Source: an uncultured Methylococcaceae bacterium (lineage in GTDB: Bacteria; Pseudomonadota; Gammaproteobacteria; Methylococcales; Methylomonadaceae). From it: DNA of 19,940 nt. This document shows positions 178 to 15,520 of this stretch, in pieces. Both the position numbers and the translations under genes were made by a program. Positions within the stretch are counted from its first letter, which is position 1. The number at the start of each line of letters is the position of its first letter. The stretch is taken from positions 1 through 19,940 of the forward strand of contig CAJAHC010000513.1 of the NCBI GenBank assembly GCA_903939355.1, given 5' to 3'. A model generated the notes under the pieces. The model worked only from the letters and a program-made list of their open reading frames with translations. It was not told the origin of the DNA and did no database searches.

Positions 178-1785
178 ATGACCAATATCGATTTAAGCAT
201 AGAGCAAGTTTATGGCCCTCGTCCCCATCTTAATCACAAGGTGGGACTGATAGAACGCATTATTTTTGTTGGTTTGCTCGTTGCAGGGCTATTGTTTGCG
301 GGCTTTAATTTGGTAAGCGACATTACTGTGTCAGGTGACATAGCTATTACTTGGCTACCCTATATATTACTGGGCATAGCTCTTTTGATTGCTCTTGGGT
401 TTGAATTTGTTAATGGATTTCATGACACGGCAAATGCAGTAGCAACAGTTATATATACGCATTCACTCCCCGCTCATATCGCAGTGCTATGGTCCGGATT
501 CTTTAATTTCTTGGGCGTTTTATTTTCGAGTGGGACAGTTGCGTTCGGTATTATATCTTTACTTCCAGTAGAGTTAGTTTTACAAGTAGGTTCTAATGCC
601 GGGTTTGCAATGGTATTTGCTCTGCTTATAGCCGCTATTATGTGGAATTTAGGTACCTGGTTATTAGGCTTGCCAGCATCTTCATCACATACTCTAATTG
701 GTTCTATTATTGGTGTAGGTGTCGCTAATGCTTTGATGCACGGCCGTGATGGTACGGGCGGCGTCGACTGGGCTCAGGCGACTAAAGTTGGCTATTCATT
801 ATTATTTTCGCCAATAATCGGATTTTGTTGTGCAGGATTGTTATTGCTGGCTTTGCGGTTTTTTGTCAAAACCCCTGATTTATATCAGGAACCCAAGGGC
901 AATAAGCCGCCATCTTTTTGGATAAGGGCTTTATTGATTTTGACTTGTACAGGCGTATCTTTTGCTCATGGATCAAATGATGGTCAAAAAGGGATGGGTC
1001 TAATTATGCTTATTTTAGTGGGTACTGTGCCGACAGCCTATGCATTAAACCGTGCGATGTCAGTCGATCGTATGGCGCCGTTTATAGCAATTTCTCATGT
1101 TACTGAAGAATCTTTAGTAAAAACCATCACGATAAATAGTACGAGTCAGCCTTCATTGATATTAGCTGACTATTTACGAACAAAAGACTTTCAGCCCCAA
1201 GTTATATCTGGACTTGCTGAGATGATTGGTGATATTGGCGAACAAGTTAAAAAATATGGTAGTTTAGCTAATGTACCAATGGCAGCCGTTGCCAATGTTC
1301 GTAATGACATGTATTTAACTTCTGAGGTTATTAGCCTTTTAGAAAAAAATAAGGTGGTCAATTTTGACATTGAAACCAATACTAATCTTAAGGTCTTCAA
1401 AAAAGACATTGATGACTCGACTAAGTACATTCCACTATGGGTTAAAGTAATTGTAGCCATCGCATTAGGCTTAGGAACTATGGTGGGATGGAAGCGCATT
1501 GTAGTGACGGTTGGTGAGAAAATTGGTAAAACCCATTTGACTTATGCACAAGGTGCTTCAGCAGAATTGGTAGCCATGGCGACTATCGGAGCTGCCGATA
1601 TGTTTGGTCTTCCAGTTTCCACAACTCAGGTGCTGTCATCAGGTGTTGCTGGGGCTATGACCGCTAACAAATCTGGATTACAGTGGAGAACTATTCGTGG
1701 TCTGGCTATGGCTTGGGTTTTAACACTACCGGTCGCAATGCTTCTTTCGGGGTCTTTATATTGGTTATTTACCAAGATTTTTTAA
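178..1785 (+). CDS. pit: PiT-family inorganic phosphate transporter
   Basis: This inner-membrane protein of 535 residues should import inorganic phosphate by cation symport. It shows the duplicated PiT signature: FVNGFHDTANAVA at about residues 77-89 and SFAHGSNDGQKGMG at about 261-274, each followed by a serine-rich partner motif (LPASSSHTLIGS, 165-176; GLPVSTTQVLSSG, 477-489). Hydrophobic segments fill both halves. A hydrophilic stretch at about 290-420 between the halves fits the central cytoplasmic loop of PitA-type proteins. A GTG lies in frame at 166, but I prefer the ATG at 178 because GTGGA just upstream can act as a weak ribosome site. The gene stands alone; the next genes are leftward. 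No regulator such as phoU is beside it. Family assignment is firm; whether it carries free or metal-bound phosphate cannot be read here. Confidence 0.93.
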   Translation: MTNIDLSIEQVYGPRPHLNHKVGLIERIIFVGLLVAGLLFAGFNLVSDITVSGDIAITWLPYILLGIALLIALGFEFVNGFHDTANAVATVIYTHSLPAHIAVLWSGFFNFLGVLFSSGTVAFGIISLLPVELVLQVGSNAGFAMVFALLIAAIMWNLGTWLLGLPASSSHTLIGSIIGVGVANALMHGRDGTGGVDWAQATKVGYSLLFSPIIGFCCAGLLLLALRFFVKTPDLYQEPKGNKPPSFWIRALLILTCTGVSFAHGSNDGQKGMGLIMLILVGTVPTAYALNRAMSVDRMAPFIAISHVTEESLVKTITINSTSQPSLILADYLRTKDFQPQVISGLAEMIGDIGEQVKKYGSLANVPMAAVANVRNDMYLTSEVISLLEKNKVVNFDIETNTNLKVFKKDIDDSTKYIPLWVKVIVAIALGLGTMVGWKRIVVTVGEKIGKTHLTYAQGASAELVAMATIGAADMFGLPVSTTQVLSSGVAGAMTANKSGLQWRTIRGLAMAWVLTLPVAMLLSGSLYWLFTKIF

Positions 1786-1953
1786 ATTTCGGTAAAAAGA
1801 TCATATAAGTGTCAACTAGCGTTAGAAATTTCAGCTAATTTACGTGCTACCTTTCTTATTTATTTAATAGGCTATGCCAAAATACATAGATTATGTGTTG
1901 AATAGCCACTGATTTCTTTATAGGAGTAAATTAGCGGTGTTTTGACTGAGTTA

Positions 1954-2280
1954 CTATGGATTGCATTTATACGCTTTCGCACTAACACTGCCGCTGTAGT
2001 CGGTGGCTGTGTATGATTGCTCCCAGACTAGGTGGGTTGCACCCAGTTTGGCCGCATGGCCCAGAGCGTTAATTTTGGCTTGTTTTATCCAGTCTTCATT
2101 ATGTCCATATCCTGATTTCCCTAGAACTTTTTGTAGATAATGACATTTTTGCATAGCTAACTCTTGTGCTTCTTGAGGTTGTGCTAAAGCGACCATGGGT
2201 GAGATTAACAAAACAAAAGAAGCAACAAAAATAAGGGCTTGAGAGAGGTTAATTACTTCAATATTAGTGTATCGAGCCAT
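1954..2280 (-). CDS. small exported protein, DUF4156-like
   Basis: This is a 108-residue protein with an N-terminal hydrophobic segment at about residues 12-33 ending in an ALA-Q cleavage-like site, so it is probably exported to the periplasm. The mature part is about 75 residues and has two cysteines, one near its start (QKCHYL) and one at the end (AYKCNP), that could form a disulfide. The pattern Cys, then GYGHNEDWIKQAKINALGHA, then GATHLVW, then AKAYKC resembles small envelope proteins of the DUF4156 type, whose function is unknown. It does not have a lipobox cysteine at the cleavage point. It lies downstream of the leftward channel-like gene with a 142-nt gap, so co-transcription is possible but not shown. 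I have moderate confidence that it is a real gene and low confidence in the family name. Confidence 0.7.
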   Translation of the reverse strand: MARYTNIEVINLSQALIFVASFVLLISPMVALAQPQEAQELAMQKCHYLQKVLGKSGYGHNEDWIKQAKINALGHAAKLGATHLVWEQSYTATDYSGSVSAKAYKCNP

Positions 2281-2422
2281 GTATTTTTACAAAGGGACCA
2301 ATATAAAAGCACGAAATTAGTTCAATTATACTTTTGCAGCTTAAATTAAACTATGCAATAGTGAATTTTTAATGAAAAGATATCCACAGTTGAGATTGCA
2401 ATTCATTGTTAGTCCGAATTTA

Positions 2423-3532
2423 CTAGGCTGATCCAAGTATTGGAATAAAAATATTAATTAAGGTAAAGCTAATTAAAATAATAAAAAAAGATACTCTATC
2501 TAGCAAGCGAGATAGGTGAGCTTCGCCCCGAATGTCAAAAAAATAGAGTGAAATAGTCGACGCGACCAGCGTCAAAAAAATACTGATCATGCCGACGTTA
2601 TTGACAATATCAAGTAATGATAAGCTACCATTGTCGGCAACAAATGAAACTGATAATAGGGAGTTTGCAACGGCTCCAAAAAAACCTCCCACGCCTAAGC
2701 CAAATCTCGGATCTACATCGGTTGGTTTAATAAAGAAAACCAATAGTGAGATTGAAACGGCTGCAAATAAGCCAATAAAAATTTTGAAATAAATGCCTAG
2801 GCCATCACGGGTAACTGCTACACCATAAAGATGCTGCGAAAAAGTAGCATGGTTATTTTTAGTGAGGCGTGGATCACCAAAGTTGGTTTTATAGGTATGC
2901 GGTTTCATTATCAGGCTATGGTTAGTGACCATAAATCCTGGCATTTTGACCCGTGAACTAATATTTGAATTAGCAATGTCTGGAATATATTCCAAACTTT
3001 TCCAAGGTAAATCACCATCTTCAATAACAATTGTTAGGATGTGATCATCTACTGGAAAACGTAAAGAATCGAAATACTTAGTGATCTGTGCCTTGATGAG
3101 ATATTTTACATAGTGTTCACCATTGATATGAGATTCACTAATTTTTTGTTTAGAGATTACTTCACCCTCGATGATATCGAAGGTTTCTCCAGGATTAATG
3201 GTATCGTCATTCCATTTAAACCAAAGGTAAAATACCGGACTCCAGGTATTATCAGATATAGATATAGAGGCAATATGATCTAGGTAAATTCCGACGTGAA
3301 CTTTTTTGGGATTACTCCCGGCGGGCAACGATAATTCTGGGTTTGTGCGGCCTGCTTCAATGCTGGTAGCACTCATTCGTGCAACATGTCTGGCAGCACT
3401 GGTTTTTTTTAGCTCATCGACTTTGATTAGGCTGAATGTGCCCATTACAACGAAAAACGAGATAAGTAGAATGGACCAAGAAATAATGAACCTGCGTCCA
3501 GATGCAGTTATGTTGGGATTTATCAATGTCAT
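2423..3532 (-). CDS. pentameric ligand-gated ion channel-like membrane protein
   Basis: This 369-residue protein has the layout of a prokaryotic Cys-loop-type channel subunit. One N-terminal helix (about 14-36) is followed by a beta-rich extracytoplasmic domain (about 75-240) and four helices at the C-terminus: M1 about 248-268, M2 275-298, M3 305-331, M4 345-366. Family hallmarks are YLWFKWND (102-109), matching the WxxW-type strand of GLIC-like channels, and RFPVDDHILTI (158-168), matching the FPxD core of the Cys-loop. The protein has no cysteine at all, as expected for bacterial members, which lack the loop disulfide. The extra N-terminal helix looks uncleaved and is followed by a charged linker. 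M2 is glycine and alanine rich (GLGVGGFFGAVANSLL), unlike a typical GLIC pore. The gene is divergent from cheR and shares its upstream region. Ligand and ion are unknown; it might be a non-conducting relative. Confidence 0.68.
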   Translation of the reverse strand: MTLINPNITASGRRFIISWSILLISFFVVMGTFSLIKVDELKKTSAARHVARMSATSIEAGRTNPELSLPAGSNPKKVHVGIYLDHIASISISDNTWSPVFYLWFKWNDDTINPGETFDIIEGEVISKQKISESHINGEHYVKYLIKAQITKYFDSLRFPVDDHILTIVIEDGDLPWKSLEYIPDIANSNISSRVKMPGFMVTNHSLIMKPHTYKTNFGDPRLTKNNHATFSQHLYGVAVTRDGLGIYFKIFIGLFAAVSISLLVFFIKPTDVDPRFGLGVGGFFGAVANSLLSVSFVADNGSLSLLDIVNNVGMISIFLTLVASTISLYFFDIRGEAHLSRLLDRVSFFIILISFTLINIFIPILGSA

Positions 3533-3632
3533 AATTGAAGTACTGATTTTATTTTAACAGTTATCAAACTATCAAATTATCAAAAAAATAGCTAATGATT
3601 TTTTGTATTCAAAAGTAGAGGCTAATTCTTTG

Positions 3633-3658
3633 GGTGATATTGAATGTAGAGTATCACC
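3633..3658. repeat. 7-bp inverted repeat upstream of cheR
   Basis: GGTGATA at 3633-3639 is repeated inverted as TATCACC at 3652-3658, with a 12-nt spacer. The right arm overlaps the first of two 14-bp direct repeats around the cheR promoter, so this could be part of an operator. No T-run follows, which argues against a terminator. Confidence 0.4.
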
Positions 3659-3720
3659 TTCGGATTGTCTTGTTTAGTAATCCTGTTTATACTGAAGTTT
3701 TGTAAAATCACCTTCAGATT
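3653..3720. promoter_or_regulatory. pair of 14-bp direct repeats flanking the cheR promoter
   Basis: ATCACCTTCGGATT at 3653-3666 and ATCACCTTCAGATT at 3707-3720 differ at one base and start 54 bp apart, about five helical turns. The first ends in the -35 hexamer and the second lies just after the predicted transcription start. This arrangement suits a repressor that binds both sites. The regulator is not identifiable here. Confidence 0.45.
3665..3693 (+). promoter_or_regulatory. sigma70-type promoter for cheR
   Basis: A -35 element TTGTCT (3665-3670) and a -10 element TATACT (3688-3693) are separated by exactly 17 nt. Four of six and five of six positions match consensus. Transcription would start near 3700, leaving a leader of about 75 nt before the cheR ATG. 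This is the best promoter match I see upstream of the chemosensory block. Confidence 0.55.
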
Positions 3721-3774
3721 TTCATTATCAATTTAGGCCCCTTAACAGTTGAATTTAGAAATACGTAAAATGGA

Positions 3775-4608
3775 ATGATGTGGCATCAAAATATATTGGG
3801 GGTTAGTGTGTTAGAGGATGAAGCTTATCAGCGAATACTGAATTGGCTTTATGATCGATGCGGCATGAGTTACCCAGAAAATAAAAAAAACTTGTTAATT
3901 CAGCATATGCAAAGAGTTCGTAAGTCTTTTAATATACCCTCACTGGCTACCATGGCAGATAAGTTGGAGTTAAATTGTAATCATGACTTGCAACTTGCAG
4001 TCGTGCATGCGGCAACTACAAATCATACTTATTTTTTTCGCGAACCATTGGTGCTAGAGTATTTCAAAAATACGATTTTACCCGCGCTCCCAGAAAAAGG
4101 TGTGCGAATATGGAGTGCTGCCGCATCTTCAGGGGATGAAGCATTCACTTTGGCCATTATAGCCGCTGAAGTACGTGGTTATTTTTGGGCGAAACAAAAT
4201 CTTGAGATTTTAGGTACTGATATCAGTCAAGTTGTCATTGCGGCTGCACAAACAGGTGTCTATTCTGAGGCACAGGTTGACAAAATGCCGAAAGAATTCT
4301 TGGAGCGATATTTTGTAACTTTTGGTAAGGGACACTTTCGTGTTCAAGATGATTTAAGACATGTTTGTAAATTTCATACCTTCAATTTAAAGTCTGAAGA
4401 CTATTTTTTCCCCAAACTTTTCCATGTCGTATTTTGTCGAAATGTGCTTTATTATTTTGATCGTGCTCACCAGCAACATGTCGTTGATGCTATCTATAAA
4501 GTTACTGAACCTGGGGGTTATTTGGTGACTTGTGTGACCATGTCAGTACGCGATTTGGATTCACGTTGGATCCATGTTGAAAATGGCATTTATCAGAAGG
4601 CAACTTAG
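3775..4608 (+). CDS. cheR: CheR chemoreceptor glutamate methyltransferase
   Basis: This 277-residue cytoplasmic enzyme should transfer methyl groups from S-adenosylmethionine to receptor glutamates, setting adaptation in opposition to CheB. The N-terminal helical domain (about 15-90) ends in TNHTYFFRE (82-90), the CheR signature. The Rossmann-type domain has RIWSAAASSGDEAF (111-124) as the AdoMet loop, LGTDIS (146-151) and VFCRNVLYYFD (219-229). Two oddities stand out: the usual Cys-Ser-Thr-Gly-Glu-Glu core reads Ala-Ser-Ser-Gly-Asp-Glu, and the C-terminal segment where a GxSE motif is usual reads GGYLVTCVTMSV. Both are tolerable but show divergence. Two ATGs occur in tandem at 3775 and 3778 with only TGGA just before, so the exact start is uncertain. 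The stop overlaps the cheB GTG by one base. It is the first gene of the rightward block. Confidence 0.93.
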   Translation: MMWHQNILGVSVLEDEAYQRILNWLYDRCGMSYPENKKNLLIQHMQRVRKSFNIPSLATMADKLELNCNHDLQLAVVHAATTNHTYFFREPLVLEYFKNTILPALPEKGVRIWSAAASSGDEAFTLAIIAAEVRGYFWAKQNLEILGTDISQVVIAAAQTGVYSEAQVDKMPKEFLERYFVTFGKGHFRVQDDLRHVCKFHTFNLKSEDYFFPKLFHVVFCRNVLYYFDRAHQQHVVDAIYKVTEPGGYLVTCVTMSVRDLDSRWIHVENGIYQKAT

Positions 4609-5582
4609 TGAACATGTTTAAAAAACCTATTCGTGTTGTCGTCATTGATAGCTCAGTTGAGGGTAGGCGTCATTTGGTTGAAGGTCTACAGAAAGATGCG
4701 CAGATTCAAGTGGTAGGTATGGCGGCCAATTTCTATAATGCACGTGATTTGATTGATGAATTACAACCGGATGTTATTACACTAGACGCGGAAATACCGC
4801 GCATGAATCGTATTACTTTTCTAAAACGCTTCATGCCGATACCCAAAGTGATTATTAATTCACTTAGTCTGCAAGGACTAGCTGAAATGGATAGAGATAT
4901 AATCAGTCGAATTAAAATAGCCGCTAATGTACAAACTATTAAACAGGATCGTAGTGAGTTTTGTGATGTTGAAGCCGCTAAGCCACCTGATAAAATGAGC
5001 GATAAATTGATAGCGATTGGCGCATCTACTGGGGGCGTAGATGCTTTATGCAGAATTTTACCTACATTTCCTGTTCATTGTCCGGGTATTGTTATTGTCC
5101 AACACATGCCGATTGGTTTCACTAGTTCATTAGCAGACCGTTTAAATGGCCTAAGTAAAATGTTTGTAAAGGAGGCTGAGGATGGTGATATTGTGTTGCC
5201 AGGAAGAGTTTACTTGGCCCCTGGTGGCCTTCGCCATATGACGATTGTTCGTTTTGGTAATCAATATAAGATTAAATTAACTAAAGGCAGTCCTGTTAAT
5301 CATAGCTGTCCTTCAGTAGATGTATTGTTCTCATCAGTGGCGTTACATGTGGGTGCGAATGCATCAGCTGCAATTCTGACGGGTATGGGTAAAGACGGAG
5401 CTAAGGGTTTGTTGGATATTCGAAGGGCTGGCGGCGCCACGGTGGCCCAGGATGAAGCGACTTCTGTGGTTTTTGGCATGCCACATATGGCTAACAAATT
5501 GGGTGGAGCTAAATGTATTGCAGCACTGGACACTATTCCATCAATACTTTTTCGTAGTCATGTTAAGTCGTTGGAAAAGTAA
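4608..5582 (+). CDS. cheB: CheB-type receptor methylesterase with degenerate receiver domain
   Basis: This 324-residue protein should hydrolyse receptor glutamyl methyl esters. The receiver domain (about 8-112) keeps Asp60 in ITLDAEIPRM and a possible Lys112. The acidic pair after the first strand, normally DD, is Asp14-Ser15, and the segment around residues 79-112 is poorly conserved. The linker is short (about 113-132). The esterase domain (133-310) keeps the whole triad: Ser140 in GASTGG, His166 in VQHMP and Asp263 in GMGKDGA. The GTG start at 4608 is preferred over the ATG at 4614 because AGAAGG (4595-4600) sits 7 nt before it. The GTG also overlaps the cheR stop, so the two are translationally coupled. 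Esterase activity is likely. Phosphorylation by a CheA is doubtful but not excluded, since Asp60 remains. Confidence 0.92.
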   Translation: MNMFKKPIRVVVIDSSVEGRRHLVEGLQKDAQIQVVGMAANFYNARDLIDELQPDVITLDAEIPRMNRITFLKRFMPIPKVIINSLSLQGLAEMDRDIISRIKIAANVQTIKQDRSEFCDVEAAKPPDKMSDKLIAIGASTGGVDALCRILPTFPVHCPGIVIVQHMPIGFTSSLADRLNGLSKMFVKEAEDGDIVLPGRVYLAPGGLRHMTIVRFGNQYKIKLTKGSPVNHSCPSVDVLFSSVALHVGANASAAILTGMGKDGAKGLLDIRRAGGATVAQDEATSVVFGMPHMANKLGGAKCIAALDTIPSILFRSHVKSLEK

Positions 5583-5667
5583 AATTAGTTTATTTTCAGA
5601 TGGCAAGATGAGTTTTAATTTCAAGCATAGCAGATAAAGCCTCTATTTCTTTGAAAGAGTCACAAAG

Positions 5668-5691
5668 GCAGACATTTACGTAAATGTCTGC
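5668..5691. repeat. perfect 24-bp palindrome between cheB and the CheW-like gene
   Basis: The arms GCAGACATTTAC and GTAAATGTCTGC are exact reverse complements with no spacer. In RNA this could fold as a 10-bp stem with an ACGU loop, but no T-run follows, so it is not a standard intrinsic terminator. It lies 86 nt after cheB and 162 nt before the next start, in an otherwise plain AT-rich gap of 270 nt. A dimeric regulator site, a REP-like repeat unit or an RNA-processing hairpin are all possible. Confidence 0.6.
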
Positions 5692-5852
5692 TCCAGCACA
5701 CATCCTAGATCCTCAAGCACCACTATTATTTGTATTTAATTGTGGTAATTATTGAATCAATTAGTTTAATGTGAAAATTAATATATGTTAATATCAAGGT
5801 AATATTTTAAATATATACTTAGTCATTCATTGTGCCTATTTGTGGGGAGAAT

Positions 5853-7295
5853 ATGCTTTCAATTAAAGTTGGCTCTGTCTTTTGCGCTTTACCGAGCGAA
5901 GCCATTCAGATCATTGACTATGTGACACCAATTACAGTCATCCCATTTGTGCATTCTCCAATTGAAGGATTGACTAATTTTAACGGCATGCCCGTAATTC
6001 AAATTGATGTTGCTAGCGCCATCGGCAATGATCGACAAGAACAGACCGGTTACAAAAGAATAATTGTTAATTATGCTGAATCCAGTTACGCATTACGGGT
6101 AGATGATGTTGTCAATTTAGCTAAAAATGAATCTTCCTCAGTCACTGATAAAAGTCAGCATTCAGTCCGTTCTTTATCGCTAAAAGAACTGATCACTTTT
6201 ACTAAGAAAAAGAAAAAACTGACAGTAAGTCCTCAAAAAATTGACAAAATCGGAAGTTCCTCAGCACAATCGGCAATCCTTGTTTTATTAGTGGCTTCTG
6301 GCGAGAGAACGGTCGCATTTCTCACGCATACCATCGATCATCTGCAAAAGATAGAATCCCTGCAGGCACTTAGCGAGCAAAGCTCACAGGGTGATTTTCT
6401 TATTAAAGTAAAGGATCATTTATTGCCGACTTACTTTTTAGGCCAATTACTAGGCCAAGAAGAGGTGGAAAATGAGTCTATCGCAATTATTTTTAAGGGC
6501 GAACACGCCATGTGGGCCTTATGCGTGCAGCAAGTACTTAAGATGGAGTACGTCGACAAGGTCTATTCCTCCGGGACAGATGCGCGAGGTTTATGGTACG
6601 TGACGCAAACGGGTGAAATTCGTGAGCTGATGGATGCGAATAATTTACCCGGGCTCCATACAGCAACTTTTTCGCCACGATTATGGTACGTAACACCAAA
6701 TGGACAAATTCAAGAATTGGTTGATGCCAACCAACTCTTGGGCAGCACAAACGACTCGCTAGATATCACTATTACAACTCCCGAAGAAACATCATTTACT
6801 TTACAGAACACTGATCAATTAACCATCGATGGCTTGCGTATCTATTGTGGTACGAGTAGTTATTTATTGCCTTTGACGATGGCTACACGTGCTGATAAAG
6901 ATTGGGATCAGGCGACGATGACACTTTCACGTTTCGGCGAAAGGGATGGATCCAGGAAAAGGGATCGAATCCCCTGTATTGATGGGAATGCTTTGTTATT
7001 TGGCAAGCCTGGGCAAACTATTGAGCGGACAGTGCGGGTTAATTTATCCTTGGGAGGTGAAATATTGCTGGGTATTGATAGAGCTGTATTATCTCAATCA
7101 TTATCTACAGCAGCTAGTTGGATTAAAGTTGATTTGCCTTATCCTGCGACACAATTTTTTGATGCAGCTCATTACGATGATGAAACAGGGCAATGGATAC
7201 TTCGGTTTTTAGATACGATCAAATTTTCAGATTTACCCTGGATAATTAAAAAATCAGTTGTGAAGGCCATTATTGGCTGGTTTGATCGTGATTGA
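5853..7295 (+). CDS. large CheW-like coupling protein with several CheW lobes
   Basis: This 480-residue protein is about three times the length of a normal CheW. Residues 1-90 resemble a CheW N-terminal half (FCALPSEAIQIIDYV; IEGLTNFNGMPVIQIDV). Residues 139-200 resemble a CheW second lobe (ILVLLVASGERTVAFLTH; YFLGQLLG). Residues 208-300 form another lobe with a duplicated element: LWYVTQTGEIRELMDANNL (247-265) and LWYVTPNGQIQELVDANQL (277-295). Residues 326-345 start a further lobe (DGLRIYCGTSSYLLPL). Residues 114-123 are lysine rich and look like a linker. An in-frame GTG exists at 5832, but the ATG at 5853 follows GGGGAG (5844-5849) and matches where CheW domains begin. Position between cheB and a receptor supports a scaffold linking receptors to a CheA that is not encoded here. 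The CheW relation is from pattern, not alignment. Confidence 0.7.
   Translation: MLSIKVGSVFCALPSEAIQIIDYVTPITVIPFVHSPIEGLTNFNGMPVIQIDVASAIGNDRQEQTGYKRIIVNYAESSYALRVDDVVNLAKNESSSVTDKSQHSVRSLSLKELITFTKKKKKLTVSPQKIDKIGSSSAQSAILVLLVASGERTVAFLTHTIDHLQKIESLQALSEQSSQGDFLIKVKDHLLPTYFLGQLLGQEEVENESIAIIFKGEHAMWALCVQQVLKMEYVDKVYSSGTDARGLWYVTQTGEIRELMDANNLPGLHTATFSPRLWYVTPNGQIQELVDANQLLGSTNDSLDITITTPEETSFTLQNTDQLTIDGLRIYCGTSSYLLPLTMATRADKDWDQATMTLSRFGERDGSRKRDRIPCIDGNALLFGKPGQTIERTVRVNLSLGGEILLGIDRAVLSQSLSTAASWIKVDLPYPATQFFDAAHYDDETGQWILRFLDTIKFSDLPWIIKKSVVKAIIGWFDRD
6591..6737 (+). repeat. 90-nt in-frame tandem duplication inside the CheW-like gene
   Basis: The units begin at 6591 and 6681, each with TTATGGTACGT, and encode two related 19-residue elements 30 residues apart (247-265 and 277-295). 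Protein identity is 12 of 19 positions. The DNA has diverged at many third positions, so this is an old duplication rather than an assembly artefact. Confidence 0.75.
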
Positions 7296-7344
7296 GACGA
7301 TTTAAATATATTTTGTATACGTAAAGTTTAAGTGAGAAATTAAT

Positions 7345-10300
7345 ATGAATATGGCTAGCAAAAAGAATCTCTATCTAATTTTCGGGGCAGTGGCGGCCCT
7401 TTTAGTTCTATTTTCTTTTGTGTTATTGAATCAAGGGGTAAGAATTAAATGGCATAGCACTGAAATTGAGACTAATTGGCTACCGGGCATTGAGTCGATT
7501 AATTCGATGCATTTAGCAATCAATAACTATCGAGCTACTGAAATTTCTCATGCCATGGCAAATGAAGGATCGTTAAAAGCTGAATATAGTCAAACCTTAT
7601 CATACTTTAATAAAGAGTTCTTGGAAGGTAAAGCCAAGTACGAGCCAACAATTAGACCCTATGCATTAAAGGAAATAGCGCTCTGGAAACAATATATAAA
7701 AAATTACGAAGATTATATGACTGCCAGTAAGCAGGCTATAGTCATGTCACAAAATAATGACAATGCAAAGGCGCTTAATCAAATTAAAAGTAATCAAGAT
7801 TTGTATGATAGCGTAATTGAATATGCACAAATGTTGGTTGATTTAAATACGACTGCAGGTTATGAAGAAGCTAAGAATGGAAATCAAGCTTATGAAAGTG
7901 CAAAAATGCAATTACTTGTTGGTCTTATAATTATTTCAATTAGTTTAATAACTATTGCTTTTTTACTGAGTAATGGAGCGATAAAACAGCAAGAGAGTCA
8001 AGCCGTATCGAAAATAAGAAAAAATATCACACTGATCTTTCTGACATTAATATTGGTTAATATTGCTTATGGTTTTCTTACCTACCAGCAACTTAGTAGT
8101 GTTAATGAGCAGATTAATCAGCTCAAGAGTAAATGGTTGCCGAGTATTGTTACGATTAATGCGATTAGCACTAAAGCAATCGGTTATGGCATTTATCAGA
8201 CCTTGTCTCTCGTAACTACCAATTCAGATGAAAAAGCGCAGTTAGAAAATAGTCGTAAATGGATTGCTGAAGAGGTTGTTAACTTACGCAAGAAGTTTTC
8301 AACCCTGATCTCAACAGATGTTGAACGCGATCTATACAATGAATTTTCTATCAGTTTTGATGAGTATAGTCTTACTAGCAAGAAAATAGAGGACTTTTCT
8401 CATCGTAACGAAATGGACAAGGCATTGATTGAAAATGATCAGAGTGCCATTCTGAAAGAAGATTTTTCTGCCATGTTAACTGATTTACTTCGTATGAATG
8501 AGCGTGGCGCTATTGCCACCAGTTATAAAAATGATGCTGCTTTAGAATCATTGAAGATCATTACCTTGGGTGGTATTAGTTTTATTGTTTTATTACTTAT
8601 TATTACTTCGCAATTGGTGGTGTCTTGGTTATTTGATGTGACTCAAGCCCAAGATACGCGATTTGAAAATAACTCAAAGACTACACTGACAATTAAAGTT
8701 AAATTACGCTTGGTTTTTTTTGGCATGCTAGGCGCATTTATTTTATTTAGCTGGTTAATCAATGGGTTAATGCAGGTATTGGACAGTAATAGTCGTGATA
8801 TTGAAAAAAATTGGCTACCCAGTATTATTAAAGCGAATCAGATCAATAAAATGGTCAGTGATTATCGTATTGCTGAATCTCAAATTGTCTTTGGTTCGAA
8901 TGTGGAAGAAAAACTATTTTGGGAAAAGAATCGTAACCGACTGATCAATAGCATTGATCACACAAAATCTAGTTATGAGCCTATCATTTCGAGTGATCGT
9001 GAAAGTGCTTTATATCAAGAGTTTTCTCATAACTACACGGAATACTTAAAGAAAAGTGAAATGATGCTGGCGTTGTTAAGTAGAAGTGATACAGCCGCCG
9101 CTATTAATGCTTTACAAGTTAATCGCCTTATATTTGATGCGATGACAGTTAATTTGGAAAAGTTAGTGCAATTGAATGCAGAAGGCGGAGTGGATGCCAC
9201 TCAGTTGAATAATCAAGTATTTAAGGAATCTCAAGAAATTATTTATGCGGTTGTGTTGGTTATTTTGATGATTACTATTTTATTTATGATCATTTTTGAT
9301 AAAAACATTTCCTTAGCCTTACAACGCCTGACGTCTTCAGTTAGAAGTTTAGCGGCTGGTGTTTTGGTGAGTGGGGGTGTCGATCTTAAAGGTCGTCACG
9401 ATGAAATTGGCCAGATGGCGGAGGCCGTGGATATGGTCAATAGAACACTGGAAGCACTGACCATAGATGCCAATGAATTGATTCATGCAGCCGAAACCGG
9501 GATGTTATCAGTTCGAGTTGATGATGCAAGGCATCCTGGAGAGTTTAGAACAATTGTTTCAGGCATGAATACGCTGATTGATGTCTTAAGTAAGCCCTTG
9601 GGTGATATTGCAGAAATAATGCAAAATCTAGCTTTAGGTGATTTATCTGGGCGTATGCAAGGTGATTATGAGGGTGAGTTGTTTATTTTAAAAACTAATG
9701 TTAATCGCAGCTTAGAGTCCCTGGTCAGTTTATTAACTGAATTAAGTCAAACCATGCAGCACATGGCTAGTAATGATTTAACGCATCTTTTAACGGGTAA
9801 CTATCAAGGTGAATTTTCCTTATTAAAAGCGAGTACTAATCAAACTATTGGCCATATGATTGAAATTATTCAGGAAATTTCTATCAGTACGTCACAATCT
9901 GCGGTAGCTATAGCACAGACATCTGAATCCTCTAAATATGTAGCCGATGAAGCATCGCAACAGATGTTTGCCATAGAAAATGTATCTAAAACGATTGATG
10001 AAACAGCAGAGTCAGTCAGTGAAATTGCCCAAAAAGCTCAGCAGGGAAGTCAATTGGCTTTGAGCACGGCTAATTATGCGAATGATGGGCAGGCGCAACT
10101 GAATAAATTAAATGATCTAATACAACTAACTGATGATATTACCCGTATAGCTGATAAAACCCATTTATTATCTTTAAATGCGGGACTTGAGGCTATGCGA
10201 GCCGGTGAATATGGACTGGGATTTGGTCTAGTTGCGCAACAAATTGGTACATTGGCAGAAGAGGTCACTATTTCAGCCCAAAAAATTCGCCAGGGTGTTC

Positions 10301-10566
10301 ATACACTTCAGGATACTCAAACAGCAATGAAGCAAATTGCGCAGGCGGCTCAAGCCAGTGAAGTTAATGTGCAGAGTATTTCAGTGGCGATTGTTCAACA
10401 ATCGTCAGCAGTTAAAACAATCACTGAACGAGTTAATGAGCTTCGTATCAGTAGTGGAGCAACGGCGTCAGCAGCTGAAGAAATAAGCTCAACGATGAAT
10501 CATTTAGCACAGGCGGTTAAAGAAACGGCTGATAAGGTAAAACGTTTCAAGTTGATTGAAAATTAA
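7345..10566 (+). CDS. MCP-A: methyl-accepting chemotaxis protein with three periplasmic sensor modules
   Basis: This is a 1073-residue receptor. Membrane helices lie at about 9-29, 188-208, 226-246, 404-428, 453-475 and 631-652. They enclose three four-helix-bundle sensor modules, each opening with the same motif: NWLPGIESIN (44-53), KWLPSIVTIN (263-272), NWLPSIIKAN (489-498). Cytoplasmic HAMP-like units follow at about 653-708, 709-765 and 766-840, two of them with GEF or GEL signatures, then the signalling hairpin (about 845-1065). The tip reads IADKTHLLSLNAGLEAMRAGE (935-955), with Thr-His where Thr-Asn is usual. A typical methylation pair is at Glu1045-Glu1046 (SAAEEISST). No C-terminal CheR-tethering pentapeptide is seen. 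The ATG follows GTGAG with an 8-nt spacer. Relative to MCP-B it lacks 11 residues in each hairpin arm. Ligand unknown; the overall style recalls PilJ-type receptors. Confidence 0.95.
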   Translation: MNMASKKNLYLIFGAVAALLVLFSFVLLNQGVRIKWHSTEIETNWLPGIESINSMHLAINNYRATEISHAMANEGSLKAEYSQTLSYFNKEFLEGKAKYEPTIRPYALKEIALWKQYIKNYEDYMTASKQAIVMSQNNDNAKALNQIKSNQDLYDSVIEYAQMLVDLNTTAGYEEAKNGNQAYESAKMQLLVGLIIISISLITIAFLLSNGAIKQQESQAVSKIRKNITLIFLTLILVNIAYGFLTYQQLSSVNEQINQLKSKWLPSIVTINAISTKAIGYGIYQTLSLVTTNSDEKAQLENSRKWIAEEVVNLRKKFSTLISTDVERDLYNEFSISFDEYSLTSKKIEDFSHRNEMDKALIENDQSAILKEDFSAMLTDLLRMNERGAIATSYKNDAALESLKIITLGGISFIVLLLIITSQLVVSWLFDVTQAQDTRFENNSKTTLTIKVKLRLVFFGMLGAFILFSWLINGLMQVLDSNSRDIEKNWLPSIIKANQINKMVSDYRIAESQIVFGSNVEEKLFWEKNRNRLINSIDHTKSSYEPIISSDRESALYQEFSHNYTEYLKKSEMMLALLSRSDTAAAINALQVNRLIFDAMTVNLEKLVQLNAEGGVDATQLNNQVFKESQEIIYAVVLVILMITILFMIIFDKNISLALQRLTSSVRSLAAGVLVSGGVDLKGRHDEIGQMAEAVDMVNRTLEALTIDANELIHAAETGMLSVRVDDARHPGEFRTIVSGMNTLIDVLSKPLGDIAEIMQNLALGDLSGRMQGDYEGELFILKTNVNRSLESLVSLLTELSQTMQHMASNDLTHLLTGNYQGEFSLLKASTNQTIGHMIEIIQEISISTSQSAVAIAQTSESSKYVADEASQQMFAIENVSKTIDETAESVSEIAQKAQQGSQLALSTANYANDGQAQLNKLNDLIQLTDDITRIADKTHLLSLNAGLEAMRAGEYGLGFGLVAQQIGTLAEEVTISAQKIRQGVHTLQDTQTAMKQIAQAAQASEVNVQSISVAIVQQSSAVKTITERVNELRISSGATASAAEEISSTMNHLAQAVKETADKVKRFKLIEN

Positions 10567-10567
10567 A

Positions 10568-12088
10568 ATGAATCCATCTGAAAATAATAAACCAGACTCT
10601 TTATTTAGAAAACTTGCGATACCCTTTATATTAAGTGGGGTATTGGGCTTAGCTATTTTCTATAGTAGTGAAGCGAATAAAGTGATGGGCTTGGCAGCAC
10701 TCCAAGGCGCCATTATTGTGGTTGGTTACGGGTTAAGTATCGCTGAAATTCTTGTTGTTTCGGTGTTATTGCGGCGTATTATTCAGTATTTTCTTCTTGA
10801 TCGTTTGATTGCACCTACCCTGGGAACCCCTACGCCTCGCTTGCTTTCGCAAATGGTCACGGTGATTACCTACACTCTGGCTATTGCGGCTGTTGTGAGT
10901 ATTGTTTTTAAAAAAGATCTCACCGTATTTTTGGCTACGTTTGGTGGTGCGAGTATCGTTGTCGGGCTTGCTTTGCAATCGATGATTCAGGATTTATTTG
11001 CCGGACTTACCATTAACCTTGATCGCTCTATTAATATTGGTGATCATATTAAGCTTAATAGTAGAAGCAATAGTGGTAATCTTGATATTATTGAAGGAAA
11101 GGTGTTGGAGATTCATTGGAGAACTCTACAACTAATTGATTCAAAAGGGAATATTGTTCTAGTGCCGAATAATAAAGTCTATGATCAAATCATCACAAAT
11201 TATTCCAGGCCTGAGAAGTTTTATAGGATTGATTTGCCGATTTTCCTAAACACAGACGTGACTATTGGCCAAGCTTTGCGTATTTTAAATACAGCCGCTC
11301 TTGAAGCGTCACCAAAATTTTCACCGGCGGACGCGCCAGCACCTTTTGTGCGAATTAATCAAATAACGCTCCACGGCGTTGAATATTTTATCCATATTTA
11401 TCCCACTTTTGAAACGCGTGATGATGCCAGAGATCTGGTTCAGAAAAATGTATTACGTTATTTAAATTACGCTGAGTTAGCGCCAGCACTAGAGAAAATA
11501 GAAGAACATATTCCCGCTACGGCCATTAATAAAATGCAGCACATTGCCAATTTATTAGGGGCAACTGATATATTCCAAGATTTATCTGCCCCTGACTTGG
11601 AATTATTAACTAACTTAGCTCAATTACGTTCTTTATCTGCGGGAGTAATAGTGGTTCAAGGTGGTGAAATAGCGAATAGTTTATTTTTTGTTATTGAAGG
11701 ATTATTGGTGCCTGAGGATTGGCGAAAAAAGGATGCTAAGGGCTCGGTTGCTAAATTAATAATAGGGCCTGGTAGTTTAATCAATGCAACCACCTTGATT
11801 GCCGGTGGCGTTTGTGAGTCAAGTATACGAACAAAGAGCCCGGTGCTTCTTTGTGAAATCAACTACGCTGCCATCGAACAATTATTTTTACAAAGCCCTC
11901 AAAGTGGTAGCTATTTAAGTCGCCGCGTAGCCGAACGATTAAGCAATAACCCTACTGATAATAATGCTGGTTTTCAACAAAAAGATATTGATAGTAATGT
12001 TGATGAGTTATATGAGAAAGTTTTTAAAAATTTGCGTCGATTATTTGCACATATGAAGCTAATCGATATGACCAGTGATAGTGAGTAG
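10568..12088 (+). CDS. MscS-type channel with C-terminal cyclic-nucleotide-binding-like domain
   Basis: This 506-residue inner-membrane protein has helices at about 17-33, 45-75 and 93-112, then the MscS pore helix at about 118-148 (FLATFGGASIVVGLALQ, DLFAGLTI). The cytoplasmic beta domain follows (INIGDHI; GKVLEIHWRTLQLIDSKGN; VPNNKV) to about residue 310. A CNB-like domain covers about 325-460 (GGEIANSLFFVIEGLL). Its phosphate-binding cassette is degenerate: the expected GE, ALL and Arg-Ala positions read LINATTLIAGGVCESSIRT, so cyclic-nucleotide binding is doubtful. The architecture is that of bCNG-type MscS homologues. The ATG at 10568 lies 1 nt after the MCP-A stop and there is no clear ribosome site, which implies translational coupling. 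An in-frame TTG at 10556 would overlap MCP-A. The paralogous MCP-B follows after 114 nt. It likely responds to membrane tension; a sensory link is inferred from position. Confidence 0.92.
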   Translation: MNPSENNKPDSLFRKLAIPFILSGVLGLAIFYSSEANKVMGLAALQGAIIVVGYGLSIAEILVVSVLLRRIIQYFLLDRLIAPTLGTPTPRLLSQMVTVITYTLAIAAVVSIVFKKDLTVFLATFGGASIVVGLALQSMIQDLFAGLTINLDRSINIGDHIKLNSRSNSGNLDIIEGKVLEIHWRTLQLIDSKGNIVLVPNNKVYDQIITNYSRPEKFYRIDLPIFLNTDVTIGQALRILNTAALEASPKFSPADAPAPFVRINQITLHGVEYFIHIYPTFETRDDARDLVQKNVLRYLNYAELAPALEKIEEHIPATAINKMQHIANLLGATDIFQDLSAPDLELLTNLAQLRSLSAGVIVVQGGEIANSLFFVIEGLLVPEDWRKKDAKGSVAKLIIGPGSLINATTLIAGGVCESSIRTKSPVLLCEINYAAIEQLFLQSPQSGSYLSRRVAERLSNNPTDNNAGFQQKDIDSNVDELYEKVFKNLRRLFAHMKLIDMTSDSE

Positions 12089-12202
12089 AGTTTATAGGAT
12101 ATCCAAGGTTAGCAAGATTTGTTGATAAAAGTTGAGCCTGAATCCGGTCAATAGGTTTAGTGAAGTAGTTTAATATGATAGTTAGATCAGTGAGACATGA
12201 TA

Positions 12203-15200
12203 ATGAATCTTAGCAGTAAAAATAAAATCTACTTAACTTTCTCAGCTGTTGCTGCCCTCGTACTCTTATTTTCTTTTGTAGTATTAAATCAAGGCGAGCG
12301 AATTAAATGGCATAGTACTGAAATTGAAACGAATTGGTTGCCGGGTGTTGAGTCAATTAATTTGATGCGATCTAGTATTAGTAACTATCGAGCTACTGAA
12401 ATCTCTCATGCCGCTACTGATCAAGAATCTTTAAAAGCTGAATATACTCAAATATTGACATCACTTAATGAAGAATTTTTATTAGCTAAAGATAAGTACG
12501 AGCCAACAATCAGAACATACGCAGTCAAGGAAAATGCGCTTTGGAAGCAATATATAAAAAATTACGATGCCTATATGTTGGCAAGTAAAAAAGTGATTGC
12601 CATGTCACAAAATAATGAGAAAGAAAAGGCTCTCAATCAAATTAGAACAAATGAAGGCTTGTATAACAGTATCATTGAATATTCAAAACTTTTGGTTGAC
12701 CTGAATTCTAATGCCGGCAATGAAGAAGCCACAAAAGGTAATGAGGTTTTTGATGCGACTAAGGTCCAGTTGATTGGAGGTGTTATTGTTATTATGCTCG
12801 TAATGATTATTATGGGTTTTTTACTGAGTTATGGCGAAATAAAACAAAAAGATAGTCACTTAATAGTCAAGGCTAGAAAAAATGTATTTTATACTTTTTT
12901 TATATTAAGTGTGATTTTAGTCATATTTAGCGGCCTCATGTATCAACAACTGAACAATGTTAACGAGCAGATTAACTCACTTAAGAATAAATGGTTGCCA
13001 AGTATCTTATATATCAATTCTATTGGTACCACTATCTATCACTATAGAAATGTTCAGACATTATCTATTCTTACAGTTCTTCCTGACGAAAAAGTTCTGT
13101 TGGAAAATAAGGCTAAATTATTGGTTGAAGATATCGACAAAGTACGCAATAAATTAATTCCTTTGCTTAGCTCAGACGCTGAAAAAAATCTTTATAAACA
13201 ATTTACTGAAAACTATGATGAATATATGAGCTACTCTCAGAGAATAGCGGATTTTTCTCATCATAATGAAATTGACAAGGCGCTCATTGAAGACCGTGAA
13301 GCAGCAATCTTGCAAGAAGATTTTTCTAGTATATTAGTTGATATGTTGCGCTCGAATGAGCGTGGTGCCATTATGACGAGTTACCAAAATGATGCCGCTT
13401 TAGAATCATTAGTTGTTATCATTTTGGGCGGTGTTACTAGTATTATTTTATTTTTTATTATCTCTGCTCAATTGGTCGAGTTCTGGTTATTGGGCATTGC
13501 CTATGACACTGAATTTGAAAAGCAATCACGGATGACATTAACGATTAAATTAAAGTTACGGTTAGTTTTCGTTGCTATGCTTGTTATCTTTATTTTATTT
13601 AGCTTATTAATCAATGGACTAATGAAAGGGTTGAATGATAATAGCCGTGAAATTGAAAAAAACTGGTTACCCAGTATTATTAAAGTGAACCAAATCAATA
13701 AAATGGTTACTGAGTATGGCCTTGCTACAACACGATATGTGTTTACTGCGGTCCCTGAAGAAAAATTATTTTGGGATAAAACGCGTAAAAGTTTGATTAC
13801 TAAGATTGCCTATATTAAATCGAGTTATGCGGCTCTCATTTCGAGCGAGCAGGAAGATGTTATATATCAGGATTTTTCTCATAACTATATGGAATATCTA
13901 AAGAAAAGTGAATTGATGTTGGCGTTATCCGATAAAAATGACTTGCCAGGTGCGATTAGAGCATTGCAAGTTAATAATGTGATATTTGATGCTATATCTA
14001 TTAATTTGGAAAAGTTAGTGCAATTAAATGCAGAGGGCGGTGAGGATGCTACGAAGAAAAATAATCAAATTTATAATGTAGCGCAACAAATTGTTTATTC
14101 GGTTGTGCTGATTATATTGGCGATCACTATTTTGTTTATGATTATTTTTGATAAAAATATTTCTGTTGCTATACAGCGATTAACAAATTCGATAAAAAAT
14201 CTATCAGTTGGTGTTTTGTCGACTAGAAATGATGATCTTAGCAGTCGTCACGATGAAATTGGACAGATGTCAAGTGCAGTCGATAAGGTAAATGAAACGC
14301 TTCAAGCACTGACGATAGATGCTAATGAACTCATACATGCCGCTGAAGATAGTCTTGATTCAAGTTTATCTGGGATGTCAGCAATACGAATTGATAGTGA
14401 TCGACATCCCGGTGAGTTTAATAAAATCGTTTCAGGTATGAATAATTTGATTGATGTAATGAGTAAACCTTTGGGTGATATTGCTGAAATAATGCAAAAT
14501 CTAGCTTTAGGCGACTTATCAGGGCGTATGCAAGGTGATTATGCGGGTGAGTTATATACTTTAAAATCAAACGTCAATCGCAGTTTAGAGGCATTAGTCG
14601 GTTTATTAACAGAGTTAAGTCAAACTATGCAATATATGGCGGGGAATGACTTAACACATAATTTGACGGGCAACTATCAGGGCGAATTTTCATTATTAAA
14701 AGCTAGTACGAATCAAACTATTGGACATATGATTGAGATTTTACAGGAAATTACTATCAGTACTTCACAATCTGCGGTGGCTATTGCACAGACGTCTGAG
14801 TCCTCAAAATATGTAGCTGATGAAGCATCGCAACAGATGTTTGCTATAGAAAATGTATCTAAAACGATTGATGAAACAGCAGAATCGGTTAGTGAAATTG
14901 CCCAAAAAGCCCAGGAAGGTAGTCAGTTGGCTTGTAGTACGGCTAACTTTGCCAGTGATGGTCAAGTGCAACTCAATAAGCTGATTGATTTAATTCAACA
15001 TATTGACGCGGAATACGTCAGAATTGAGAAAATAACGGATGAGATTACCCGTATAGCAGATAAAACACATTTACTATCTTTGAATGCAGGGCTCGAAGCT
15101 ATGCGAGCCGGTGAGTATGGATTAGGATTTGGATTTGTTGCACAGCAAATTGGTGCATTATCTGAGGAAGTGACGGCTTCTGCCAATAGTATTGGTAGTG

Positions 15201-15520
15201 TAATTAATAGTTCTGGACAAAAAATTCGTTTAGGTGTCCATGCAATGCAAGAAACCCAAGTAGTAATGGCTCAAATTGCTCATGCTGCCCAAGCGAGTGA
15301 GGTTAATGTGCAGAGTATTTCCGTTGCTATAGTTCAACAATCGGCAGCTGTGAAAGCTATTACTGATAGAATTAATGAGCTTCGAATCAGTAGTGGCGCA
15401 ACGGCATCTGCAGCGGAAGAAATCAGTTCTACCATGAACCATTTAGCACAAACAGTTAAAGAAACGGCTGATAAGGTAAAACGTTTTAAGTTGATTGAAA
15501 ATAAAAATCAGCTGAGCTGA
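12203..15520 (+). CDS. MCP-B: paralogous chemotaxis receptor with three periplasmic sensor modules
   Basis: This 1105-residue receptor is colinear with MCP-A: six membrane helices (about 9-29, 190-210, 230-248, 403-426, 452-474, 630-650) around three sensor modules. These open with NWLPGVESIN, KWLPSILYIN and NWLPSIIKVN. Three HAMP-like units and a signalling hairpin follow. The tip (about 951-971) is identical to MCP-A over IADKTHLLSLNAGLEAMRAG. The methylation pair is at about Glu1071-Glu1072. It has normal-length hairpin arms, including the segments HIDAEYVRIEKI and NSIGSVINSSG that MCP-A lacks, and one extra heptad in the HAMP stack (about 716-722 onward). An ATG at 12197 is in frame, but the ATG at 12203 matches MCP-A and keeps the same 8-nt spacing from GAG. 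It ends five residues later than MCP-A. It is the last gene of the block, probably from tandem duplication. Confidence 0.95.
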   Translation: MNLSSKNKIYLTFSAVAALVLLFSFVVLNQGERIKWHSTEIETNWLPGVESINLMRSSISNYRATEISHAATDQESLKAEYTQILTSLNEEFLLAKDKYEPTIRTYAVKENALWKQYIKNYDAYMLASKKVIAMSQNNEKEKALNQIRTNEGLYNSIIEYSKLLVDLNSNAGNEEATKGNEVFDATKVQLIGGVIVIMLVMIIMGFLLSYGEIKQKDSHLIVKARKNVFYTFFILSVILVIFSGLMYQQLNNVNEQINSLKNKWLPSILYINSIGTTIYHYRNVQTLSILTVLPDEKVLLENKAKLLVEDIDKVRNKLIPLLSSDAEKNLYKQFTENYDEYMSYSQRIADFSHHNEIDKALIEDREAAILQEDFSSILVDMLRSNERGAIMTSYQNDAALESLVVIILGGVTSIILFFIISAQLVEFWLLGIAYDTEFEKQSRMTLTIKLKLRLVFVAMLVIFILFSLLINGLMKGLNDNSREIEKNWLPSIIKVNQINKMVTEYGLATTRYVFTAVPEEKLFWDKTRKSLITKIAYIKSSYAALISSEQEDVIYQDFSHNYMEYLKKSELMLALSDKNDLPGAIRALQVNNVIFDAISINLEKLVQLNAEGGEDATKKNNQIYNVAQQIVYSVVLIILAITILFMIIFDKNISVAIQRLTNSIKNLSVGVLSTRNDDLSSRHDEIGQMSSAVDKVNETLQALTIDANELIHAAEDSLDSSLSGMSAIRIDSDRHPGEFNKIVSGMNNLIDVMSKPLGDIAEIMQNLALGDLSGRMQGDYAGELYTLKSNVNRSLEALVGLLTELSQTMQYMAGNDLTHNLTGNYQGEFSLLKASTNQTIGHMIEILQEITISTSQSAVAIAQTSESSKYVADEASQQMFAIENVSKTIDETAESVSEIAQKAQEGSQLACSTANFASDGQVQLNKLIDLIQHIDAEYVRIEKITDEITRIADKTHLLSLNAGLEAMRAGEYGLGFGFVAQQIGALSEEVTASANSIGSVINSSGQKIRLGVHAMQETQVVMAQIAHAAQASEVNVQSISVAIVQQSAAVKAITDRINELRISSGATASAAEEISSTMNHLAQTVKETADKVKRFKLIENKNQLS

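What the first reader, a model, noticed from the sequence alone, without database searches (positions are those of the whole stretch)
10100..10300. Matched 11-residue gaps in both arms of the MCP-A signalling hairpin
Aligned to its paralogue MCP-B, MCP-A lacks 11 residues in the descending arm (LIQ-L-TDDITR against LIQ-HIDAEYVRIEKI-TDEITR, break near residue 928) and exactly 11 in the ascending arm (EEVTISA-QKIR against EEVTASANSIGSVINSSG-QKIR, break at 978/979). The breaks lie about 26 and 25 residues from the turn at Gly954, so they face each other in the folded antiparallel hairpin. Known MCP length classes differ by symmetric heptads. Eleven is not a multiple of seven but is one hendecad (three helical turns), so the coiled coil could absorb it. 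The hairpin would be about 1.6 nm shorter, which could change which array or kinase layer the receptor joins. Both gaps are in frame and the gene is otherwise intact, which argues for selection rather than decay.
Basis: partly seen in the sequence, partly recalled or inferred. Interest (0 to 1): 0.8.

Follow-up and report, generated by a model that had tools for sequence, protein, structure and literature searches.

The report
Chemoreceptor with matched eleven-residue gaps
One of two sister chemoreceptors in an uncultured methane-oxidising bacterium has lost eleven amino acids from each of two facing strands of its signalling rod, an unusual but inherited and well-preserved shortening that departs from the usual seven-residue steps and offers a natural test of how such rods carry signals.

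Summary
MCP-A lacks exactly 11 residues in each arm of its signalling hairpin relative to MCP-B. It is not a sequencing error or decay: the same two gaps recur in three genomes of one genus, and no row examined has only one of them. The short signalling module is one clade (96/96) and stays short where its sensor differs; dN/dS of the hairpin is 0.03-0.09 at dS about 1. MCP-B aligns gaplessly with E. coli Tsr and the long-type relatives have both segments, so the gaps are deletions in MCP-A. The lost segments, Tsr 353-363 and 415-425, lie on facing core layers. Most other indels in my small controls are multiples of seven, not all. AlphaFold keeps two unbroken arms with a modest loss of confidence at both junctions. 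Best reading: a selectively kept, non-heptad variant of the 36H length class, about 1.6 nm shorter. A separate array, or altered gain through the phase break, is inferred and untested.

The parts
7345..10566 (+). MCP-A, 1073 aa: three 4HB sensor stretches, HAMP domains, short signalling hairpin
   Evidence: Pfam 4HB_MCP_1 x3, HAMP_2, HAMP, MCPsignal
10123..10128 (+). descending-arm junction Q927|L928; 11 residues (33 nt) absent relative to MCP-B 14999-15031
10276..10281 (+). ascending-arm junction A978|Q979; 11 residues (33 nt) absent relative to MCP-B 15185-15217
10201..10209 (+). hairpin turn A953-G954-E955 (Tsr 389-391)
   Evidence: turn at model residue 111 = A953
12197..15520 (+). MCP-B, 1107 aa, long (36H-like) paralogue
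   Evidence: 208 residues gapless on Tsr
14999..15031 (+). MCP-B H935-K945, the descending segment missing from MCP-A (Tsr 353-363)
15185..15217 (+). MCP-B N997-G1007, the ascending segment missing from MCP-A (Tsr 415-425)
14348..14368 (+). MCP-B-type 7-residue insertion in the linker before the second HAMP
   Evidence: present in 6 of 6 B-type rows that the pattern could read, absent from 3 of 3 A-types and 10 of 10 readable long-type outgroups; 12 further rows gave no match to the pattern
3775..4608 (+). CheR methyltransferase
4608..5582 (+). CheB methylesterase
5832..7295 (+). protein with two CheW stretches, directly upstream of MCP-A
10556..12088 (+). MscS-like channel with cyclic-nucleotide-binding domain, between MCP-A and MCP-B

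Best explanation
MCP-A is a working chemoreceptor whose signalling hairpin is a derived, non-heptad short variant of the 36H class. In one genus of Methylococcaceae the A copy of a duplicated long receptor lost 11 residues from the descending arm and 11 from the facing part of the ascending arm, between the glycine hinge and the CheA/CheW contact tip: three core layers in all. Equal lengths keep the arms in register, so tip and methylation end still pair; the rod is about 1.6 nm shorter. Because 11 is not a multiple of seven, tip and base of each helix are offset by about -51 degrees relative to the long form, a stammer-like break that the bundle must absorb by local overwinding or looser packing. 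Shown: the gaps, their single origin, conservation and purifying selection. Inferred: in-register packing (model), reduced height, stammer. Most likely consequence, inferred only: MCP-A reaches the same CheA/CheW as MCP-B through a nearly identical tip but does not mix well in arrays with MCP-B, so the two report separately to one kinase.
For: Gaps unique to A-types: 3 of 114 spanning protein rows have -11/-11, 105 of 114 have no gap there; 3 of 56 hits of a junction-spanning search (gaps judged). A-type in 3 of 237 family genomes, all in the window's genus (judged from match length), at the same codons. Cytoplasmic tree: A-type one group 96/96; sensor tree: not, so the module stays whole although one sensor differs. 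Hairpin dN/dS 0.03-0.09 at dS 0.88-1.12. G078 has the A-type without a B-type. MCP-B: 208 on 208 residues of Tsr; model 1-251 on 250 residues, 1.7 A. Glycines 340, 341 and 439 lie in one plane (PMC6606802 passage), sum 779-780, against gap sum 778. A model: two continuous helices; 228 residues on a 250-residue Tsr span, 1.8 A (3zx6_B). Five of six A-specific fixed substitutions lie within 11 columns of a junction (p=0.0013, post hoc). Sorting by length has precedent at 14 residues (PMC6759762 passage).
Against: No experiment on this family. Monomer model from an alignment with 54 of 58 long-type rows; other receptor chains gave other spans for MCP-A (231 on 241-242 residues for 8c5v_I, 9a65_A, 9a69_B), so the 22 of 3zx6_B is not uniform. 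Herrera Seitz 2014 was seen only as cited; 11 residues is below the 14 quoted. In G078 no B-type partner exists to be kept apart from. In the long form the hydrophobic phase already drifts by about 30 degrees in opposite senses in the two arms, so -51 degrees is arithmetic, not a measured twist. The clustering p value is post hoc (0.001-0.03 over four window sizes). dS near 1 makes dN/dS rough.
Confidence: 0.55

Rival explanations
1. Neutral compensated accident: one arm lost 33 nt by slippage, the second deletion was selected only to restore register, and the shorter rod has no special function.
For: A 5-nt direct repeat (TTCTG) spaced 33 nt lies at the ascending site in G000_B and G077_B; the A-type without a B-type in G078 shows that a long partner is not needed.
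Against: Kept over dS about 1, with fixed substitutions near the junctions; no single-gap row seen; at the descending site runs of only 3-4 nt, and none in G000_B.
Confidence: 0.3
2. Built-in phase break: the deletion is kept because the stammer between hinge and tip changes the coupling of methylation bundle and tip bundle, shifting kinase bias or gain, rather than because of length.
For: -11 is -4 modulo 7; ten-residue blocks with the junctions have pLDDT 80 and 85 (83 in the next block) in MCP-A against 92-95 in MCP-B; phase stutters are proposed to couple bundle stabilities oppositely (PMC4651059 passages).
Against: No functional data; MCP-A's model is lower throughout (mostly 85-91), so the local dip is modest; spread over four heptads the break is 31/9 = 3.44 residues per turn and could be nearly silent.
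Confidence: 0.25
3. Assembly or sequencing artefact, or a decaying gene.
For: The window comes from a 671-contig bin with 5.02% contamination.
Against: Same gaps in L008 and L012 and in protein clusters P0001-P0003 (162+47+5 member sequences; P0003 includes the contig of L012, so the sets overlap); open frames; dN/dS 0.03-0.09.
Confidence: 0.01

Closest known systems
36H chemoreceptors such as E. coli Tsr (class of Alexander and Zhulin, seen only as cited)
   Same: Hairpin fold, HAMP input, similar tip, hinge position G340 kept in 103 of 103 long-type rows and in MCP-A (G915); MCP-B aligns gaplessly
   Different: MCP-A is 11+11 residues shorter, not a heptad multiple
Symmetric-heptad length classes in general
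   Same: Length change is equal in the two arms and lies between hinge and tip; the rule is quoted in PMC5907407 (passage)
   Different: The step is 11, not 7 or 14, so coiled-coil phase changes as well as length
Stammers in coiled coils (PMC4786415 passages)
   Same: Loss of 4 modulo 7 gives a 3-3 core step, predicted here in both arms
   Different: There shown in parallel stalks; here inferred for an antiparallel four-helix bundle, without a structure
Chemosensory systems of alternative cellular function (class recalled)
   Same: CheA, CheW, CheR, CheB with a receiver-cyclase and a phosphodiesterase-like gene nearby; FliG not found in G000 or G077
   Different: MscS-like channels with cyclic-nucleotide-binding domains sit in both gene clusters

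Membership tests
Methyl-accepting chemotaxis protein (PF00015) | MCPsignal domain over the curated cut-off | tested here: met
   MCP-A 67.8 bits, MCP-B 76.7 bits, cut-off 34.6
Methyl-accepting chemotaxis protein (PF00015) | long antiparallel helical hairpin | tested here: met
   AlphaFold helices 2-110 and 112-224 (MCP-A), 2-121 and 123-257 (MCP-B); receptor chains among the top matches, with SMC and other long-helix chains too
Methyl-accepting chemotaxis protein (PF00015) | methylation-site consensus in both methylation helices | tested here: inconclusive
   ASAAEEISST at A1041 and B1070 in the C-terminal helix; no strict match in the N-terminal methylation helix of either; two further matches in MCP-B lie elsewhere (369, 986)
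Methyl-accepting chemotaxis protein (PF00015) | binds CheA and CheW | not testable with these tools
   tip nearly identical to MCP-B's; cognate genes adjacent
36H length class | gapless length match to a 36H receptor through both arms | tested here: not met
   MCP-A is 22 residues short of MCP-B and of the Aer2 profile; MCP-B meets it
36H length class | best score to the published class HMMs | not tested
   those HMMs were not on hand
Any other heptad length class | arm length differs from 36H by a multiple of 7 | tested here: not met
   difference is 11 per arm
Coiled-coil stammer | overwound segment near 10/3 residues per turn, in known examples with a 3-10 helical turn | tested here: inconclusive
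   register bookkeeping agrees; the tool's three-state secondary structure shows helix and no coordinates were given

The most novel reading that the evidence does not exclude
MCP-A defines a natural chemoreceptor length class outside the heptad series, in which evolution changed rod height and coiled-coil phase in one paired step; the phase break between glycine hinge and tip sets the receptor's gain or bias, and the height keeps its array apart from MCP-B's, while both feed a single CheA that controls cyclic nucleotides and nucleotide-gated MscS-type channels.
Probability: 0.2. Interest if true: 0.72.

Novelty: new variant of a known kind. Interest (0 to 1): 0.52.

Why it matters
Receptor rods are described as changing length in symmetric seven-residue steps (PMC5907407 passage), which keep both register and phase. 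A conserved 11+11 deletion separates the two: register kept, phase changed. It offers a natural pair of receptors with nearly the same tip to ask whether array sorting depends on height, on phase, or on both, and whether a stammer in an antiparallel signalling bundle is merely tolerated or used.

Tried and rejected
Artefact and decay: rejected. Hendecad absorption: rejected on register arithmetic (definitions). Insertion in MCP-B instead of deletion in MCP-A: rejected, since Tsr and the 103 long-type rows, MCP-B among them, have both segments. Those 103 rows were left after I dropped the four A-type rows and seven odd ones (P0025, P0093, P0103, P0104, P0107-P0109) from 114; itself aligned 112 of the 120 listed hits, and 900 had passed the threshold. 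Gene conversion: A/B similarity in G000 is raised at B 871-900 (94% of nucleotides, 83% of same-residue codons) but not across the gaps; not pursued. Slippage: a 5-nt repeat at the ascending site, 3-4 nt runs or none at the descending one; inconclusive.

Controls and what speaks against a clean heptad rule in them (recounted): 114 of 121 protein rows span Tsr 345-435 (7 did not and are left out): 105 no gap, 3 with -11/-11, 3 with parts adding to 7s, 1 with +14, and 2 that do not fit (P0103 +17 near the tip, P0116 +1). Of 28 receptor loci 8 have no gap, 17 only multiples of seven, 1 (L046, the G077 A-type) -11/-11, and 2 do not fit (L052 -1/+3, L059 +3). In most of the 17 the local alignment shows a +14 or +7 in the ascending arm without its partner, and three loci or rows show -7 with +7, so this control speaks to step size, not to symmetry. 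The 28 loci are best matches from eight genomes, not a random sample. One paper notes a receptor that matched no class model (PMC6391922 passage), so unclassifiable lengths exist elsewhere.

A VIA row on the short Tsr fragment 6s1k_E gave 102 aligned over 108 model residues, which -11 = +3 modulo 7 might explain, but only ranges are printed; not used as evidence. Matches outside chemoreceptors are generic long helices and were not followed. A wide survey with length-class HMMs was not done. Literature: 'chemoreceptor' with 'hendecad' gave 0 papers; in the listings, judged by titles and abstract starts, and in the passages I opened, I saw none on a non-heptad class; the founding paper of the classes (PNAS 2007, recalled) is not held, so absence from print is not claimed.

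Full report
OBSERVATION. MCP-A (7345-10566) and MCP-B (12197-15520) are paralogues with 745 of 1071 aligned residues identical. Their alignment has two gaps of exactly 11 residues in the signalling hairpin of MCP-A, at Q927|L928 and A978|Q979; both are clean 33-nt absences. On the NCBIfam Aer2 profile MCP-B covers 309 positions with 309 residues, MCP-A 295 positions with 273. MCP-A also lacks a 7-residue stretch before the second HAMP, but there the B-types look derived: 6 of 6 readable B-type rows have it, 3 of 3 A-types and 10 of 10 readable outgroups lack it, and 12 rows gave no match to the pattern.

POLARITY AND SPREAD. One search found 900 relatives and listed 120; 112 of these were aligned, and P0001, P0002 and P0003 alone share the gaps, always both. 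A search on the junction-spanning stretch gave 56 hits, the same three with the gaps (judged). In 237 genomes of the family, 8 hold a relative at E <= 1e-40. By match length the short form is in G000, G077 and G078, all of the window's genus; G000 and G077 also hold the long form, and five other genomes show a long form only. By contig number and coordinates G077 is the bin of L008 (Erken-D9_bin-0517) and G078 that of L012 (MJ110516B_bin-0860), both labelled uncultured Methylococcaceae (my inference). In G000, L008 and L012 the short gene sits directly after a CheW-domain gene; in L012 it is the only receptor there, followed by an MscS-like gene with a cyclic-nucleotide-binding domain.

SELECTION AND ORIGIN. 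The three A-type hairpins have pairwise dS 0.88-1.12 and dN/dS 0.03-0.09 (Nei-Gojobori, so the ratios are rough). In a tree of the cytoplasmic part (21 rows) the A-types form one group (96/96); in a tree of the sensor part they do not, because the G077 A-type carries a different sensor. The module with both gaps thus arose once and has stayed whole. Six residues are fixed in the A-types and absent from the other 18 rows (Tsr numbering 348 I to N, 364 I to L, 367 E to D, 398 F to L, 434 A to T, 435 M or T to L). Five of six lie within 11 columns of a junction, p = 0.0013 by a hypergeometric count chosen after seeing the data; the other three window sizes gave 0.028, 0.0062 and 0.0020.

ANATOMY. 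MCP-B aligns to Tsr without a gap over 208 residues, and its model's residues 1-251 align with 250 residues of a Tsr fusion at 1.7 A; this fixes B = Tsr + 582. The missing pieces are Tsr 353-363 and 415-425. In Tsr the hinge glycines 340, 341 and 439 lie in one plane across the bundle (PMC6606802, passages), so facing residues sum to about 779. The conserved hydrophobic positions of 103 long-type rows suggest layers with sums 778 and 779 (the choice of core positions is my inference). The two gaps sum to 778: they are level with each other and remove three layers, between hinge and kinase-contact tip.

THE PHASE. With core steps 3-4-3-4 in the long form, the deletion leaves 3-4-3-3-4-3-4 in the descending and 3-4-3-4-3-3-4 in the ascending arm. 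A 3-3 step is a stammer, which overwinds the helices; a hendecad arises from the opposite change, an insertion of four (PMC4786415, passages). The offset is -51 degrees per helix at 3.5 residues per turn; spread over about four heptads it would be 31 residues in 9 turns, 3.44 per turn, within the helical range given there. The long form is not perfectly regular either: its hydrophobic phase drifts by about 30 degrees, in opposite senses in the two arms.

MODELS. AlphaFold gives MCP-A two unbroken helices with the turn at A953, mean pLDDT 86.9; the ten-residue blocks holding the junctions have 80 and 85, the block after the second 83, most others 85-91. MCP-B has mean 91.1 and 92-95 at the matching places. 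MCP-A aligns with the Tsr fusion 3zx6_B over 228 residues spread on 250, rmsd 1.8 A; with 8c5v_I, 9a65_A and 9a69_B the spans were 231 on 241-242, so the count of unaligned residues is not uniform. These are monomer models from an alignment with 54 of 58 long-type rows; the native unit is a dimer of hairpins in trimers.

IS IT UNUSUAL. Of 121 protein rows 114 span Tsr 345-435: 105 no gap, 3 with -11/-11, 3 with parts adding to 7s, 1 with +14, 1 with +17, 1 with +1. Of 28 receptor loci from the eight genomes, 8 have no gap, 17 multiples of seven, 1 (the G077 A-type) -11/-11, and 2 neither (L052, L059). The control speaks to step size; it did not resolve the pairing of gaps in most rows. That length varies by symmetric heptads, and that arrays sort by length class, was read in passages of PMC5907407 and PMC6759762. 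I saw no paper on a non-heptad class, but the founding paper is not held, and one paper mentions a receptor that fits no class model (PMC6391922, passage).

CONTEXT. The PF00015 scan finds two matches in G000 (MCP-A, MCP-B), two in G077 and seven in G078. In G000 the CheW scan points to one CheA, cut by contig ends on C239 and C204 (joining inferred); in G077 the matching gene is whole, 892 aa, with Hpt, kinase, two CheW stretches and a receiver. Around it lie CheW, a dCache protein, a receiver-cyclase, a phosphodiesterase-like gene (over the Pfam cut-off in G000, below it in G077) and an MscS-like channel with a cyclic-nucleotide-binding domain. FliG was not found in G000 or G077. Both receptors therefore most likely report to one kinase that acts on cyclic nucleotides rather than on flagella (inference).

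MECHANISM. Most likely MCP-A signals through the same kind of tip as MCP-B but from a rod about 1.6 nm shorter (11 residues at 0.15 nm, inference). Receptors that differ by 14 residues are reported to sort into separate arrays (PMC6759762 quoting earlier work, passage). The difference here is 11 per arm, and the B-type linker insertion may widen it. Separate arrays under one kinase would let two sensors report independently. A rival that I cannot exclude is that the phase break itself is the useful part; another is that neither matters.

VERDICT.

Noticed in passing
L061 (G077 C54) 1391-11661; L023 and L024 (G000 C204, C239): Partner cluster: CheA with two CheW stretches and a receiver, CheW, dCache protein, receiver-cyclase, phosphodiesterase-like gene, and a second MscS-like channel with a cyclic-nucleotide-binding domain. 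It suggests a chemosensory pathway acting on channels through cyclic nucleotides in bacteria where FliG was not found.
   Followed up: partly
window 7345-9300 and 12197-14160: Each receptor carries three 4HB sensor stretches (PF12729), which by eye look like separate membrane-spanning units in one chain.
   Followed up: no
L008 4703-11306: Sensor parts of the G077 pair look exchanged relative to G000: the G077 long receptor has a sensor more like the G000 short one than the G077 short one does.
   Followed up: partly
window 14348-14368: B-types carry a 7-residue insertion before the second HAMP, so A and B have diverged in length at two places.
   Followed up: partly
window 2423-3532 (-): Protein without a Pfam match; weak hits to a proton-gated channel/glycine receptor chimera (E 0.012) and TIGR00860 LIC (E 0.0099) hint at a pentameric ligand-gated channel beside the chemosensory genes; a similar frame lies at the same place in L008.
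   Followed up: partly
window 9844-10023 and 14717-14896: A and B of G000 are unusually alike just upstream of the first gap (94% of nucleotides at B 871-900), possibly a small conversion tract that stops before the gap.
   Followed up: no
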